DNA of 34,362 bases from an uncultured Caryophanales bacterium (GTDB lineage: Bacteria > Bacillota_I > Bacilli_A > RFN20 > CAG-826). The position numbers were made by a program, and so were the translations under genes. The notes beneath the pieces were generated by a model. The model saw only the letters and a program-made list of their open reading frames with translations, made no database searches and was not told the origin of the DNA. Below, piece by piece: positions 27,819 to 34,362 of the stretch (position 1 is its first letter; each line of letters opens with the position of its first letter). Location: the NCBI GenBank assembly GCA_947302535.1, contig CAMYVX010000010.1, forward strand, positions 1 through 34,362, in the 5' to 3' direction.

Positions 27819-30152
27819 ATGGAAACATTGAAATTATCGGTCCACCAATTAGTGGACTTTCTTTTGAGAAAAGGAAGCATTGATAATCGTGTTTTTAATC
27901 GTGCTTCTATGAGTGAAGGAAGTAGACTTCATCGTTTGTACCAATCTAATCAAGATGCGGATTTTCTTTCTGAATACCCTTTAAAACATGAATATTATGT
28001 CGACGGTGTATTAATTGAATTAAATGGTTTTGCTGATGGAATTAGACAAAATAAGTTCGGTGAATACTGTGTTGAAGAAATTAAAACCACAGTGGAAGAG
28101 CTACAAGTCTTTAAAGAAGAAAATATAGCTTGGCACCTTGGACAAGCTAAATGCTACGCTTTGATGTTTGCTCAAGAAAGAAAACTAGAAAGAATATCTA
28201 TAAAAATTATTTATATCAGGCAAGGAAAAGAAAAAGAAAGACTAGTTGATCTTTATAATTTCTCGACCACTGAATTAGAACAAGATGTTATTACATATTT
28301 AGAAGATTATTTAGATTTTTATAGCATTATTTTTCGTTATAACGAAAAGAAGATGGAATCTATTAATAATTTAGCTTTCCCATTTGGTAAATATCGTAAA
28401 GGCCAAAGAGAACTATCTAAATATGTCTATGCACTAGCTAGTAATGGTGGAAGGATGTTTATTGAGGCTCCAACTGGAATTGGTAAAACGATGTCGACTC
28501 TTTTTCCTTGTATCAAAGCCCTTTCTTTGAATGATAAAGGAAAAATCTTTTATCTAACAGCAAAGACTAGTGGGAAAGAAGCTGCCTATAATGCTGTAAA
28601 TATTTTAAAGGAAAAGGGATTAATAATTAATGATATTGTTATTACCGCTAAAGAGAAGATTTGTCCTAATGGACAAAAGACATGTAATCCTGATGAGTGT
28701 CCCTTTGCTAAGGACTACTATACAAAACTTCAAGCAATCTTAAGATTTGCTTTAACTAACTACTCAACTTTTGATTATGACTTAGTAAATCAGATTGCTT
28801 TCGATAATATGATTTGTCCTTTTGAATTACAGTTAGATTTATCGCTTTTCTGTGACATCATCATCTGCGATTATAATTACTTATTTGATCCAATTTCATA
28901 TATGAAACGCTATTTTGATGAGGATAGTTCACATTATATGGCACTTATTGATGAGGCTCATAACCTTGTAGACCGTTCGCAGAATATGTATAGTGCTTCT
29001 CTTTCCTATAACACATTCTTAAAGATGAAGAAGTCCTTAAGAAAAGTTAAGTCAGTAAAACTGAAAAGAAGAATTACTTCTTTAAATCGTATGTTTGAAG
29101 AGATTAATTTGACATATGAAGATAATGAAACAATTATTGAAAAGTTGAGTGACGAATATATTGATTATCTTATTGATTTCAATGAAACATATTTGGCGGT
29201 CAATAAGGATGACCATCACCTTATTACAAAAGAAACAACAAACTTCTTTTTAGACGTAAATCGCTTTTTGAAGATTGGCGAATTAGTGGATGAAAAATAT
29301 TTGACCTACATTCGCAAGAATAGTGAAGACATAACTATTAACTATTTCTGTCTTGATACTTCTAAGTTCCTCCATTCGTTAACAAATAGAATCAAACTTG
29401 CTTTATTCTTCTCCGCGACATTTTCACCAATGGATTATTACGTTAATATGCTGGGTGGCGAGAGTGGTGATGCTTGTTTGTCTTTACCATCTCCATTCCC
29501 AAGAGAAAACTTTGAAGTGCTCGTAGCCCCCAAGGTTTCTATTAAATATAAGCACCGTGATGAATCATATGAAAGTGTAAGGAAATATATCAAAACATTT
29601 GTTTCTTCCAAGATCGGCAATTACTTTATTTATTCTCCGAGTTATGAATATATGCATAAACTTTTAGCGGGTTTTGAGATGGAAGATGTTGATGTTTATC
29701 AACAAAGCAAAGAGATGAGCGACAAAGAAAAGCAAACATTCTTACTTAACTTTACTTCTTCGCCCACCAAAACAACTCTTGGCTTTTTAGTTATTGGTGG
29801 CTCCTTTGGAGAAGGTATTGATTTAGTTAGCGATCGCCTTATAGGAGTGGTGATTATTGGTATTGGTCTACCAAGAATTAATTTTGAATCCAATCAAGTG
29901 GCGGAATATTTTAAGAATCAGGATATGGCTGGATACGATTATGCTTATACAAATCCTGGCATTAACAAAGTTATGCAAGCTGTTGGTCGAGTTATTAGAA
30001 GCGAAGAAGATAAAGGCGCAGCTTTATTAATCGATGAAAGATATTTAAATCGTAATTATTTAGATTTATATCGAGCAGAATGGAAAAACTATAAAGTAGT
30101 GTTCAACGAAGAAGATATTCAAGGAGCTTTAAAGAATTTTTATAACAAATAA
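27819..30152 (+). CDS. PD-(D/E)XK nuclease-like domain fused to an Fe-S XPD/DinG-type SF2 helicase
   Basis: N-term ELNGFADGI...VEEIKTT...HLGQAKCYALMF; helicase EAPTGIGKTMSTLFP, LIDEAHNLVDR, VIGGSFGEGIDL, QAVGRVIRSEEDKG; four Cys (ICPNGQKTCNPDEC ... MICPFEL). Confidence 0.88.
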   Translation: METLKLSVHQLVDFLLRKGSIDNRVFNRASMSEGSRLHRLYQSNQDADFLSEYPLKHEYYVDGVLIELNGFADGIRQNKFGEYCVEEIKTTVEELQVFKEENIAWHLGQAKCYALMFAQERKLERISIKIIYIRQGKEKERLVDLYNFSTTELEQDVITYLEDYLDFYSIIFRYNEKKMESINNLAFPFGKYRKGQRELSKYVYALASNGGRMFIEAPTGIGKTMSTLFPCIKALSLNDKGKIFYLTAKTSGKEAAYNAVNILKEKGLIINDIVITAKEKICPNGQKTCNPDECPFAKDYYTKLQAILRFALTNYSTFDYDLVNQIAFDNMICPFELQLDLSLFCDIIICDYNYLFDPISYMKRYFDEDSSHYMALIDEAHNLVDRSQNMYSASLSYNTFLKMKKSLRKVKSVKLKRRITSLNRMFEEINLTYEDNETIIEKLSDEYIDYLIDFNETYLAVNKDDHHLITKETTNFFLDVNRFLKIGELVDEKYLTYIRKNSEDITINYFCLDTSKFLHSLTNRIKLALFFSATFSPMDYYVNMLGGESGDACLSLPSPFPRENFEVLVAPKVSIKYKHRDESYESVRKYIKTFVSSKIGNYFIYSPSYEYMHKLLAGFEMEDVDVYQQSKEMSDKEKQTFLLNFTSSPTKTTLGFLVIGGSFGEGIDLVSDRLIGVVIIGIGLPRINFESNQVAEYFKNQDMAGYDYAYTNPGINKVMQAVGRVIRSEEDKGAALLIDERYLNRNYLDLYRAEWKNYKVVFNEEDIQGALKNFYNK

Positions 30153-30178: not shown

Positions 30179-31993
30179 ATGGAATTTGATCAAAAGAAAA
30201 CACGCAATTTCTCTATCATTGCCCACATCGATCACGGTAAGTCAACTTTGGCAGATCGTATTTTAGAGCAGACTGGTGCGATTGAAGAAAGAGAAATGAA
30301 AGACCAAATTCTCGACTCTATGGATCTAGAAAGAGAAAGAGGAATAACTATTAAGTTAAACGCCGTAACTCTTTCGTATAAAGCCGATGATGGTGAAGAT
30401 TATATCTTCAATCTCATCGACACTCCAGGGCATGTTGACTTTACCTACGAAGTATCACGCTCACTCGCTGCTTGCGAAGGTGCGATTTTAGTTGTTGATG
30501 CCACTCAAGGAGTAGAGGCGCAAACATTAGCCAATACTTATCTTGCTATCGATAATGATTTATACATTTTACCAGTTATCAACAAAGTTGATTTACCAAG
30601 TGCCGCGCCTGAAATGGCAAAAAAGGAAATCGAAGAAAGAATTGGTATTGATTGTTCTAACGCCATCGAAGTATCAGCGAAGACTGGTTTTCACATTCAT
30701 GATTTATTAGAAGCAATAGTGAAATATATCCCTGCTCCTAATGGAGATATTAATAAACCTTTAAAAGCCCTTATCTTTGATAGTTATTATGATTCTTATC
30801 GTGGCGTCATTATTTTAGTAAGAATTAAAGAAGGTAAAATTAATGTTGGCGATAAGATTTATCTTATGCAAGCCAAAAAAGAATATTTAGTAACTGAACT
30901 TGGTATTAGAACACCCAATGAATTTAAACTTAATTCATTAATCTCTGGTCAAGTTGGTTATATTGCTGCTCAGATTAAGGATATAAAAGATATCCATCCT
31001 GGTGACACAGTTACTTTATCAAATAATCCTTGTGTAGAGGCTTTGCCTGGATATCGCGTTATGAACCCAATGGTTTATTGTGGCTTATATCCTGTTAGTA
31101 GTGATGATTATCAATCTTTAAAAGAAGCTTTAGAAAAGCTTACTCTTAATGATGCTTCTTTACAATTTGTCGCTGAGACTAGCCAAGCTTTAGGTTTTGG
31201 TTTTAGATGTGGTTTTTTAGGTTTACTTCATATGGACATTGTCCAAGAAAGATTAGAAAGAGAATATAATCTTGATTTAATCTTAACGGCCCCAAGTGTT
31301 ATTTATAAAGTCCATCTAACAGATGGAGAAGTGATAAATTTAGATAATCCATCTAAACTTCCAGAAGCTTCTAAAGTAGCTTATATTGAAGAACCTTATG
31401 TGAAGGCGAACATTATGACACCTAAAGAATATGTAGGAGCGATCATGCAGTTATGTCAGGACCGTCGTGGCATTTATACATCTTTAGAATATTTCGATGA
31501 TACAAGAATGGTGTTGACTTACGAATTACCGTTAGCGGAAATTGTTTACAATTTCTTTGATAAACTCAAGAGCTACACAAAAGGGTATGCCTCCTTTGAT
31601 TATGAATATAGCGATTATCATCGTAGCGACTTGGTGAAACTCGATATTTTATTAAACGGACAAGTGGTGGATGCTTTAAGCAGTATCATTTATCGTCCAA
31701 GCGGATATCAAAGAGGGCTTGGTATAATTCGAAGAATTAAAGAAGTCATTCCTCGTCAACAATTTGAGATTCCTATTCAAGCCGCGATTGGTGGCAAAGT
31801 CATTGCCCGTTGCGATGTGAAAGCGGTACGTAAAGATGTCTTAGCCAAGTGTTATGGTGGAGATATTTCCCGTAAAAAGAAGCTTTTAGAGAAGCAAAAA
31901 GAAGGTAAAAAGAGAATGAAGAAGATTGGATCTGTTGAAGTTCCTCAAGATGCCTTCATGTCTATCTTGTCGATAGACGATAACGATAAATAG
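30179..31993 (+). CDS. lepA: Elongation factor 4 (LepA)
   Basis: [64 protein letters not shown]-terminal [32 protein letters not shown]. Confidence 0.99.
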
Positions 31994-32036
31994 TAAAAAA
32001 TTAGTAGATTTTTATAAATGTTCTTGCATATATCTA

Positions 32037-32073: not shown

Positions 32074-33462
32074 ATGGGAAATAGTGAACTTGCAATTCGT
32101 TTTACCGAAAACTATTATGCGACTAAAAGTGAAGTCAGTCGCGAACTTAAAATGTCATTAATTGATAATATTTGGTCTGATATTTTGACTTATCGTGGTA
32201 ACTTTTACCATTATTTGACATTACGTGGTATTGATCGCTCAATGCTTTCATTATGTATGTGTCCAAATATCTCCAATCAGCTTAGCAGTTTACAAGGACG
32301 CCTTATGAACGCAAACGCGGAATATTTAAGATTAAATATTGCTAATGGAGATTTGAAATATTTTGAGATGAGCTGCCGTATATCCGCACTTAAATCATTA
32401 GCGGCCTTCCATCAATTAGACGTAAGTGAGAATTTTATCCGCTCCATTATCAATGGAACCATCTCCGAATCTAATGATTCCATGAAAGTGTTGTCTTTAT
32501 ATAACAAGGCTTTAGATTATGTTAAAGATAAACACTTTGATCCTATTGATAATGATTTTGTGAGAGGATTATACGCTGAGATGACTGGTTCTTCTCAACC
32601 TTATTCTTTCTTTAGAATGAATAAAGATGCTAATCCATCTAACCGCGTGATTATTGACCGTATTTATACATCCGCTCCTGTTGAAAGTATTGATTCGATG
32701 ATGAGTAGTTTATATAGCTTTATTGAAAAGGCGACTATCCCAAATATCGCTAAAGCGATGATTACTCATTATTATGTTTCTTATGTCCGTCCTTTCGATA
32801 ATTATAATGATGAGATGGCTTTATTAATGATGAAAGCCGTCTTAGCGCATTTCGATTTATTAGAGTTCGGCGTGGCTTTGCCGCTTGAAAGTCTTCTTTT
32901 AGAAGCTGAAGAATTAACAAAAATGAGTGTAGAAACACAAAAGACTCATGATGTTACATATTATGTAAATGTTATGTTAAGACATGTTGGCCGTAAATGC
33001 GAAGAAGTCTTCGACATTATGACTAACCAGAAAAAAGAAGAAATCAAAAAAGAAATTTACCAAGAAGAAGTCGCGGTAAAAGTTCCTGAAGAAAAGGAAG
33101 AAGCTCTTGAAGCTGTTATGGAAAAAGAAGAAACAGTGGAAGAAAAGAAAGAACCCGCTCCTACCTATTCTAATGAAATTGCGATTAGCTATATTCCTCC
33201 AGAATTAGATGAAAAGCAAGCAGCTAGATTAGAAAACCACCTCTTAGAATTGGATCCTTCCTTAAGGAAAGGGGAAGCGAAATTCTATGCTAGACATTGT
33301 ACTTTAGGTAAATCATATACCATCGCTCAATATAAGAAAGCGATTGGCTGTGTTTATGAAACTGCTAGAACTAGTATGGACCATCTAGTAGAATTAGGTT
33401 ATTATCGTAAAGATAGAGTGAACAACAAAAAGAATGTTTACACTCCAATTGCTAGAAAGTGA
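32074..33462 (+). CDS. Fic-fold-like protein with degenerate active site and C-terminal winged-helix domain
   Basis: Helical layout resembling Fic (SIINGTISES...; ..AKAMITHYYVSYVRPFDNYNDEMALLMM) with the HPFxDGNGR motif replaced by RPFDNYNDE; charged linker; C-terminal YTIAQYKKAIGCVYETARTSMDHLVELGYYRK wHTH-like region. Confidence 0.65.
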   Translation: MGNSELAIRFTENYYATKSEVSRELKMSLIDNIWSDILTYRGNFYHYLTLRGIDRSMLSLCMCPNISNQLSSLQGRLMNANAEYLRLNIANGDLKYFEMSCRISALKSLAAFHQLDVSENFIRSIINGTISESNDSMKVLSLYNKALDYVKDKHFDPIDNDFVRGLYAEMTGSSQPYSFFRMNKDANPSNRVIIDRIYTSAPVESIDSMMSSLYSFIEKATIPNIAKAMITHYYVSYVRPFDNYNDEMALLMMKAVLAHFDLLEFGVALPLESLLLEAEELTKMSVETQKTHDVTYYVNVMLRHVGRKCEEVFDIMTNQKKEEIKKEIYQEEVAVKVPEEKEEALEAVMEKEETVEEKKEPAPTYSNEIAISYIPPELDEKQAARLENHLLELDPSLRKGEAKFYARHCTLGKSYTIAQYKKAIGCVYETARTSMDHLVELGYYRKDRVNNKKNVYTPIARK

Positions 33463-33470
33463 GGACTATT

Positions 33471-33704
33471 ATGAGAACATTTGCTGACATTCCTACTCCA
33501 TTAATCTTCGTCATTGTTTTATTGGTTGTGGCCGCTGTCGCGGGTATTGCCTTTGGCATCTACCGTTTACTTCATCCGAAACTAAAAGAACAACCTCGTG
33601 ATACTTCTCATGACCTTCAAGAATCTCTTGACCGTATCTTAGAACCTGTCGAGGATGAAAAAACTGCTGAAGAAATCAGTAACTATAAAGAAAAAGATGA
33701 ATAA
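33471..33704 (+). CDS. Small single-pass membrane protein with acidic cytoplasmic tail, unknown function
   Basis: One TM (PLIFVIVLLVVAAVAGIAFGIYRLL) then acidic tail; SD gagga upstream of ATG 33471; overlaps hemW. Confidence 0.7.
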   Translation: MRTFADIPTPLIFVIVLLVVAAVAGIAFGIYRLLHPKLKEQPRDTSHDLQESLDRILEPVEDEKTAEEISNYKEKDE

Positions 33705-34362
33705 AATCTCCTCTTTATACATACATATACCTTTTTGTGAGAATATTTGCGAATATTGCGACTTTGCTAAGTTGCAATATTTTCGTAATATCGCTCTTCC
33801 TTATTTAGAAAAGTTAAAACAAGAACTAGATTCTTACCATATTAAAGATGGGATTAAAACCATCTATGTTGGAGGAGGAACACCTACTGCATTAGAGGAT
33901 GATTTGTTTTTGGAATTATTAAAGATAATTAAACCATATTCTTTAGATGTCCAGGAATATACCTTTGAAGCTAATCCAGAATCACTAAGCGAAAATAAAA
34001 TTAAGATGATGAAAGAATATGGGGTGAATCGTCTTTCTCTTGGAGTGGAATCTACAAATGATGAAATACTCCGTTTAATCAACCGTCACCACACCTTTAA
34101 TGACGTCAAAAAAGCCATTTCCTTAGCCAAACAATATGGAATCAATAATTTAAATGTTGATTTGATTTTAGGGCTTCCACATGTCAATAAATCACTTTTA
34201 AAGGAAGATCTAGCAAATATCCTTGCCTTGGATGTTAAACATATCTCTTGCTATGGGCTTACAGTTCATGAACATACTCAATTCTTTTTAAAGAAAATTA
34301 AGGAACCGGAAGATGATGTTTTAAGAGAGATTGGAAATATGGTTTTCGATGTCATCGGAGAA
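33697..34362 (+). CDS. hemW: HemW (radical SAM, coproporphyrinogen-III-oxidase-like), 3' truncated by window
   Basis: Frame from ATG 33697: MNKISSLYIHIPFCENICEYCDFAKLQYF...TIYVGGGTPTALEDD...EYTFEANPESLSENKI...GVNRLSLGVES; CxxxCxxC radical SAM motif. Open to window end. Confidence 0.95.
   Translation, partial: MNKISSLYIHIPFCENICEYCDFAKLQYFRNIALPYLEKLKQELDSYHIKDGIKTIYVGGGTPTALEDDLFLELLKIIKPYSLDVQEYTFEANPESLSENKIKMMKEYGVNRLSLGVESTNDEILRLINRHHTFNDVKKAISLAKQYGINNLNVDLILGLPHVNKSLLKEDLANILALDVKHISCYGLTVHEHTQFFLKKIKEPEDDVLREIGNMVFDVIGE

What the first reader, a model, noticed from the sequence alone, without database searches (positions are those of the whole stretch)
32074..33462. Probable Fic pseudoenzyme fused to a winged-helix domain
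The segment AKAMITHYYVSYVRPFDNYNDEMALLMM fits the Fic core helix-loop, but where active Fic proteins have HPFx(D/E)GNGRxxR this protein has RPFDNYNDEMAL (R codon at 32788-32790). The catalytic His, the anion-hole GNG and the ATP-binding Arg are all lost. The upstream element normally carrying the inhibitory SSxIEG motif reads RSIINGT (32440-32460), so the autoinhibitory Glu is also replaced. The ORF is intact, has an SD and promoter, and keeps a C-terminal wHTH, which argues for a retained non-AMPylating role such as a ligand-sensing transcription regulator. The family assignment is a by-eye remote similarity.
Basis: partly seen in the sequence, partly recalled or inferred. Interest (0 to 1): 0.62.

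Follow-up and report, generated by a model that had tools for sequence, protein, structure and literature searches.

The report
Dead Fic protein at chromosome terminus
A conserved gut-bacterial protein built on a Fic enzyme that has lost its catalytic residues carries a DNA-binding domain and a membrane partner gene, and it travels with a DNA repeat, apparently undescribed, that marks the chromosome's replication terminus and sits a fixed distance from the dif site, which suggests a new terminus-organising system.

Summary
Observation confirmed: the 462-aa ORF is intact and has a Fic fold (AlphaFold pLDDT 86; Foldseek top hits are Fic+wHTH proteins; family profile vs 4rgl E=3e-11) without the Fic motif. 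In 46 homologues the catalytic His is Lys/Arg/Ala, the GNG loop is gone, Arg9 is Glu (44/46), while Pro-Phe is invariant. The gene is syntenic (lepA–X–TM protein–hemW–hrcA–grpE–dnaK) and under purifying selection (dN/dS about 0.05–0.1): a real pseudoenzyme family.

New: a direct repeat, TTAGTA-N5-TTAGTA, precedes the gene in nearly all homologues. Across 296 class genomes, 3-repeat arrays occur in 29/39 with the gene and 9/257 without (p=6e-24). In five genomes the arrays cluster around the GC-skew terminus, are mostly intergenic, and one lies 92–146 bp from dif in fixed orientation in 24/25 gene-bearing genomes and in none of five lacking it.

Best reading: a DNA-binding pseudo-Fic that organises or tethers the terminus/dif region, probably through the co-encoded membrane peptide; it would work like MatP or Noc but is unrelated to them. 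Binding of the repeat by this protein is inferred, not shown. A fork trap or plain transcription regulator are the main rivals.

The parts
32074..33462 (+). Pseudo-Fic/winged-helix protein, 462 aa (called c0 here)
   Evidence: ORF; homologues in 48/58 relatives and 52 loci; Fic fold; dN/dS
32074..32259 (+). N-terminal domain, residues 1-62 (three helices and a beta hairpin, wHTH-like order; no Pfam match)
   Evidence: secondary structure of AF2 model; also aligned in active Fic cousins and, by the family profile, in some short f25 homologues
32263..33072 (+). Fic-like core and its long C-terminal helix, residues 64-333
32788..32823 (+). Degenerate Fic motif RPFDNYNDEMAL, residues 239-250 (His1 to Arg, GNG lost, Arg9 to Glu)
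33199..33459 (+). C-terminal winged helix, residues 376-462, the most conserved part of the protein
   Evidence: homologue L067 matches Penicillinase_R (BlaI/MecI wHTH) at its cut-off
31991..32012 (+). Direct repeat TAGTAAAAAATTAGTAGATTTT upstream of c0 (TTAGTA half-sites, 11-bp period; overlaps the lepA stop codon)
   Evidence: motif built from upstream regions, 18.4 vs 8.4 bits in shuffles; only hit above 13 bits in the window
33471..33704 (+). Small single-pass membrane protein, 77 aa: short N-terminus, one hydrophobic helix, conserved acidic tail (partner gene c2)
   Evidence: follows c0 in 50 of 53 loci, usually by 2-20 bp
33621..33659 (+). Conserved tail motif of c2, EELDRVLxPVEDE-like (residues 51-63)
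   Evidence: alignment
30179..31993 (+). lepA (EF4), upstream neighbour in most homologous loci
33697..34362 (+). hemW-like radical SAM gene (cut by the window end), downstream neighbour; hrcA-grpE-dnaK-dnaJ follow in relatives (names from gene order and lengths, my reading)

Best explanation
The protein is a catalytically dead Fic-fold scaffold fused to a DNA-binding winged helix. It most likely binds tandem TTAGTA repeats (11-bp period) that mark the replication terminus region of its chromosome, including a fixed site about 115 bp from dif and one in front of its own gene. By bridging these sites and by contacting the co-encoded single-pass membrane protein, whose conserved tail may lie in the peptide groove of the dead Fic domain, it holds or presents the terminus/dif region at the membrane or division site. 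Shown: fold, loss of the catalytic motif, conservation, gene pairing, repeat arrays, their terminus and dif positions, and co-occurrence with the gene. Inferred: that this protein is the binder, that the Fic groove binds the tail, and the organising/tethering role.
For: Fic fold and dead motif; 20 pseudo-Fic rows split from 13 active Fics with 100/99 support. Purifying selection, strongest in the wHTH. Repeat in front of the gene across genera, in either orientation, also where lepA is not adjacent (L061, L064, L065). Co-occurrence of 3-repeat arrays with the gene: 29/39 vs 9/257 genomes, p=6e-24. Terminus: in G010, dnaA at 714 kb, skew maximum at 184.3 kb, 12 of 16 arrays within 100 kb of it (p=1.4e-5); arrays centred on the skew maximum also in G005, G020, G025, G201. 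dif: repeat (2 mismatches or fewer) on a fixed side and in a fixed orientation 90-165 bp from dif in 24/25 gene-bearing genomes, background 0.8% of windows, p about 1e-49; absent in the c0-lacking genomes, including G044 of a family whose other members have both. Arrays intergenic 33/44 although coding covers about 91%; 9/33 in convergent gaps, 0 in divergent gaps. Membrane partner.
Against: No binding or localisation data. The window's own repeat taken alone is not beyond chance (29% of shuffles); the significance comes from comparison across genomes. Several gene-bearing genomes, mainly genus g24, lack strict 3-repeat arrays, though those looked at keep the repeat before the gene. G015 has the gene but no repeat at its dif. 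AlphaFold of a natural c0-c2 read-through gave no confident docking signal (no coordinates available). Another co-inherited protein could be the binder. Genomes with the short f25 homologues show no such arrays beyond noise.
Confidence: 0.5

Rival explanations
1. Replication fork trap: the protein bound at terminus sites blocks forks in one direction, as RTP and Tus do, and autoregulates its gene through the site in its promoter.
For: Sites cluster at the terminus; orientation is biased, 33 of 44 arrays point with the local fork direction (p=0.0013); Tus and RTP genes also carry a ter site in their promoter area (PMC10331603).
Against: About a quarter of arrays, including exact ones such as G010:142140, point the other way, which would be unusual for a fork trap; the bias can follow gene orientation (19 of 24 arrays in same-strand gaps lie along the genes); fixed spacing to dif and a membrane partner are not fork-trap features; no RTP homologue.
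Confidence: 0.15
2. Ordinary transcription regulator (autoregulator and regulator of terminus-proximal genes) whose dead Fic domain senses a ligand or the membrane protein.
For: A repeat lies upstream of its own gene in nearly all homologues; some G000 sites precede genes read by eye as ftsA-ftsZ, dnaG, dxs; CccR, a FIC plus DNA-binding protein, represses its own promoter (PMC9755527).
Against: No array in a divergent gap and 9 of 33 in convergent gaps; clustering at the skew maximum and fixed spacing to dif are unexplained.
Confidence: 0.13
3. Xer accessory factor: the protein bound about 115 bp from dif shapes the recombination synapse or directs FtsK/XerCD, and the other sites are secondary.
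For: Nearly constant spacing and orientation relative to dif in 24/25 genomes, with a TT(A/T)TCCACA element between dif and the repeat in many.
Against: Does not explain a dozen further arrays over 100-200 kb nor the membrane partner.
Confidence: 0.1
4. The repeat belongs to another co-inherited DNA-binding protein, and the pseudo-Fic protein has an unrelated role.
For: Binding is inferred only from position and co-occurrence.
Against: The repeat follows the gene when its neighbours change; the wHTH is the most conserved part.
Confidence: 0.12

Closest known systems
Class II Fic proteins with C-terminal wHTH (SoFic 3eqx, Dde_2494 4rgl, Coxiella CbFic2 8cil)
   Same: Fic core followed by a C-terminal winged helix; best fold matches. 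CbFic2 binds DNA, mainly through its HTH (PMC10628234).
   Different: CbFic2 keeps the HPFxDGNGR motif and an inhibitory TSAIEG; here both are gone, and the associated DNA sites are terminus-linked.
Active Fic-wHTH cousins in related bacteria (HPYFDYNGR type: L089, L090, L132, L133)
   Same: N-terminal domain and Fic core align by profile (E=1.7e-14); the YN of DYNGR is retained in many pseudo-Fic sequences.
   Different: Catalytic His, Asp, Gly and Arg present, SExEGT-like inhibitory motif present (SEIES in L090).
AvrB (Fido fold without the Fic motif)
   Same: Fic-like fold lacking the catalytic motif that binds a peptide (RIN4) beside its beta hairpin (PMC2686095).
   Different: A plant-pathogen effector; to my knowledge no wHTH and no chromosomal sites.
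MatP/matS of Enterobacteria
   Same: Repeated DNA site confined to the terminus region; links terminus to division (PMC3330122, PMC7188993); membrane contact reported (PMC6538776).
   Different: MatP family absent here; different site; here a separate membrane protein and a dif-linked site.
RTP/Ter of Bacillus subtilis
   Same: Terminus sites and a site in its own promoter (PMC10331603); winged-helix fold (my knowledge).
   Different: No homologue found; RTP sites are directional barriers, here polarity is partial.
Noc/NBS of Bacillus subtilis
   Same: DNA-binding protein that brings scattered sites to the membrane (PMC4331003).
   Different: Noc reaches the membrane by its own amphipathic helix and is ParB-like; from memory its sites are sparse near the terminus.

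Membership tests
Fic/Fido fold superfamily | Fic fold | tested here: met
   AF2 model pLDDT 86.5; Foldseek top PDB hits are all Fic proteins, best E 5e-8; profile 4rgl E=2.8e-11
Catalytically active Fic AMPylases | HxFx(D/E)GN(G/K)RxxR motif | tested here: not met
   His, both Gly and Arg9 lost in 46/46 homologues; Pro-Phe kept
Class I-III Fic autoinhibition | (S/T)xxxE(G/N) inhibitory helix | tested here: not met
   no such signature at the aligned helix
Catalytically active Fic AMPylases | ATP binding and AMP transfer | not testable with these tools
   needs biochemistry
Winged-helix DNA-binding domain (BlaI/MecI-like) | wHTH fold and family match | tested here: met
   helix-helix-helix-hairpin in model; homologue L067 22.7 bits vs cut-off 22.6; the window protein itself gives no Pfam hit for this part
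MatP | sequence family PF06303 | tested here: not met
   absent in 19 genomes incl. own, while the E. coli control rings
MatP-like function | repeated sites confined to the terminus region | tested here: met
   (five genomes)
MatP-like function | protein binds those sites and bridges or tethers them | not testable with these tools
   inferred from co-occurrence and position only
RTP fork trap | sequence family PF02334 | tested here: not met
   absent in 19 genomes; B. subtilis control rings
Replication fork trap (function) | sites oriented to block forks leaving the terminus | tested here: inconclusive
   33/44 concordant, partly explained by gene orientation

The most novel reading that the evidence does not exclude
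A previously unknown terminus system in Gram-positive Bacilli: a dead Fic enzyme turned DNA-binding organiser, its membrane tether peptide, and TTAGTA arrays including one about 115 bp from dif with a DnaA-box-like element between, together coupling dif and the terminus to the membrane or divisome.
Probability: 0.4. Interest if true: 0.92.

Novelty: new variant of a known kind. Interest (0 to 1): 0.8.

Why it matters
How the terminus is organised and linked to division is described mainly for MatP (enteric bacteria) and ZapT (Caulobacter); a 2020 paper calls it unclear for the vast majority of bacteria (PMC7188993). A widespread gene that co-occurs with terminus- and dif-linked repeats in small-genome gut Bacilli would make the question testable in a new lineage, and would be, as far as I know, the first case of a Fic enzyme scaffold recruited for chromosome architecture. 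Independently of that, the TTAGTA arrays give a sequence marker for the terminus of these uncultured genomes, and the gene is a clean case of a conserved pseudo-Fic family.

Tried and rejected
Rejected: decaying pseudogene (dN/dS about 0.05-0.1, intact in dozens of genomes). Rejected: non-Fic fold. Rejected: homologues with intact motif elsewhere. Rejected: RSIINGT as inhibitory motif. Inconclusive: c0-c2 docking by AlphaFold of natural in-frame read-throughs (pTM 0.61, tail helices pLDDT about 70-80, no coordinates returned). Controls: backwards-read pattern in every genome search; for the 2-mismatch pattern in G000 alone hits did not exceed the control (16 vs 24), so weak single sites in one genome mean little. 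Tree one search contained two mistranslated rows and was discarded; one search replaces it. One search stopped with a script error after part of the rows. Small membrane protein: no Pfam family beyond scattered weak transmembrane matches.

Full report
Observation. The ORF 32074-33462 encodes 462 aa. The Fic assignment, made by eye, holds: Pfam Fic is just under its cut-off for the single sequence, 14 of 46 homologues match it at E of 0.01 or better, a family profile finds Fic structures with 4rgl at E=2.8e-11, and the AlphaFold model (46 sequences, pLDDT 86.5) has as best PDB matches Fic proteins, among them 4rgl, SoFic and CbFic2, which carry C-terminal winged helices.

The active site is gone throughout the family. 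In 46 homologues the catalytic His is Lys (38), Arg (7) or Ala (1); Asp5 is unconserved; both Gly of GNG are lost; Arg9 is Glu in 44; Pro2 and Phe3 are invariant; the Arg at 181 is invariant. More divergent members of the order also lack the His (L124, L127, L128, L129). Against active cousins of the HPYFDYNGR type the profile alignment runs from the N-terminus through the Fic core (E=1.7e-14) and places the missing inhibitory SxxxEG near residues 108-114, not at RSIINGT. Twenty pseudo-Fic sequences separate from thirteen active ones with 100/99 support; the root is not fixed, so one origin is likely rather than proven. dN/dS between close pairs is 0.03-0.19 in the Fic core and nearly always below 0.1 in the winged helix.

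Genome context. By protein search the gene or a Fic relative occurs in 48 of 58 sampled genomes, and the gene in 52 contigs of uncultured Bacilli, mainly from gut and rumen samples. Order: DinG-like helicase, lepA, this gene, a 70-110-aa membrane protein, hemW, then genes that by order and size are hrcA, grpE, dnaK, dnaJ. The membrane protein follows in 50 of 53 loci. It has one hydrophobic helix followed by basic residues and a conserved tail EELDRVLxPVEDE, which I read as cytosolic.

Short homologues (about 270-310 aa) sit at the same lepA-hemW position in another family, f25. They share the winged helix (E=1e-22) and, by the class-wide profile search, the N-terminal region in some; the two tested give no Pfam match. 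There the next gene is, in five of six loci, a regulator that reads as Spo0A-like (Spo0A_C at E 2e-17 in the two tested), and Spo0A-box-like sequences stand upstream (box consensus from my knowledge).

The repeat. The gaps before the gene in diverse genera share tandem TTAGTA half-sites with 11-bp period. A motif search gives 18.4 bits against 8.3-8.5 in shuffles. In 579 kb of loci nearly all strong hits lie 46-90 bp before this gene, also in reversed orientation and where lepA is not the neighbour. The matrix was trained on these gaps, so this scan shows specificity rather than independent discovery.

In whole genomes the exact two-repeat pattern exceeds its backwards-read control in gene-bearing relatives (12 vs 2 in G000, 20 vs 4 in G010, 18 vs 1 in G025) but not in order relatives without the gene. 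Over 296 class genomes, three-repeat arrays with at most one mismatch are present in 29 of 39 gene-bearing and 9 of 257 other genomes (Fisher p=6e-24). Relatedness inflates this p-value; the gene-bearing genomes of this sample come from two families.

Terminus. In G010, where one contig holds most of the chromosome, dnaA and the GC-skew minimum are at 714 kb and the skew maximum is at 184 kb; 12 of 16 arrays lie within 100 kb of the maximum (p=1.4e-5). In G005, G020, G025 and G201 the arrays are centred on the skew maximum of their contigs (mean offsets -6 to +4 kb). Arrays are intergenic in 33 of 44 cases although called genes cover 90-93% of the DNA; nine lie between convergent genes and none between divergent genes. 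Orientation follows the local fork direction in 33 of 44 (p=0.0013) and follows gene direction in 19 of 24 same-strand gaps.

dif. A dif-like site, one in nearly every genome that has a match (consensus ACTTCGNATAATNNNNATTATGTTAACT, first found with the B. subtilis dif sequence from memory), lies within about 100 bp of the skew maximum in G010, G201 and G000. On its GTTAACT side, in one orientation, a repeat lies 92-146 bp away, most often 113-116 bp, in 24 of 25 gene-bearing genomes from families f1, f3 and f5; background is 0.8% of windows (p about 1e-49; relatedness again inflates this). Five genomes without the gene show none at this place (L314 is cut short by its contig end). Between dif and the repeat many genomes have TTTTCCACA or TTATCCACA, like a DnaA box.

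Interpretation. The simplest account is that the winged helix binds the repeat. The site in front of the gene recalls Tus and RTP, whose genes carry a ter site in their promoter area (PMC10331603). The multi-site confinement to the terminus recalls MatP/matS (PMC3330122), and the membrane partner recalls Noc (PMC4331003). No MatP or RTP family member was found in 19 genomes. I favour terminus organisation or tethering over a fork trap because of mixed polarity, the dif spacing and the membrane partner, and over a transcription regulator because of the intergenic geometry. A dead Fic-like domain that binds a peptide has a precedent in AvrB (PMC2686095); that the c2 tail is the peptide here is a guess.

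Limits. Binding, localisation and phenotype are untested.

Noticed in passing
L118-L123, between lepA and hemW: In family f25 the short homologue is followed in five of six loci by a Spo0A-like regulator (Spo0A_C E about 2e-17 in two tested), with Spo0A-box-like TTTTGTCGAAA upstream of the homologue; L129 (f5) has both the box and TTAGTA repeats.
   Followed up: partly
dif regions, L309 and L315-L328: A TT(T/A)TCCACA element (DnaA-box-like) lies roughly 84-96 bp from dif, between dif and the TTAGTA repeat, in many gene-bearing genomes.
   Followed up: partly
L303, L307, L308, L310: Some f3 and f5 genomes have TTAGTA arrays on both sides of dif.
   Followed up: no
L072 (CAMBSI010000003.1): A record titled Staphylococcus epidermidis carries this gut-Bacilli locus; probably a mislabelled metagenome bin.
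   Followed up: no
G000 (own genome), L130, L134-L138: Five other Fic-family genes over the Pfam cut-off; motifs seen: HPFYDGNGRIGR (L130), HPFEDGNGRTAR (L134), and HPYNHGNGRLSR (L135).
   Followed up: partly
L036 and L078 (inside the DinG-like gene): Strong TTAGTA repeat hits away from the pseudo-Fic gene, possibly further terminus arrays.
   Followed up: no
window 27819-30152: DinG/XPD-like helicase gene, conserved two genes upstream of the pseudo-Fic gene in about 37 loci.
   Followed up: no
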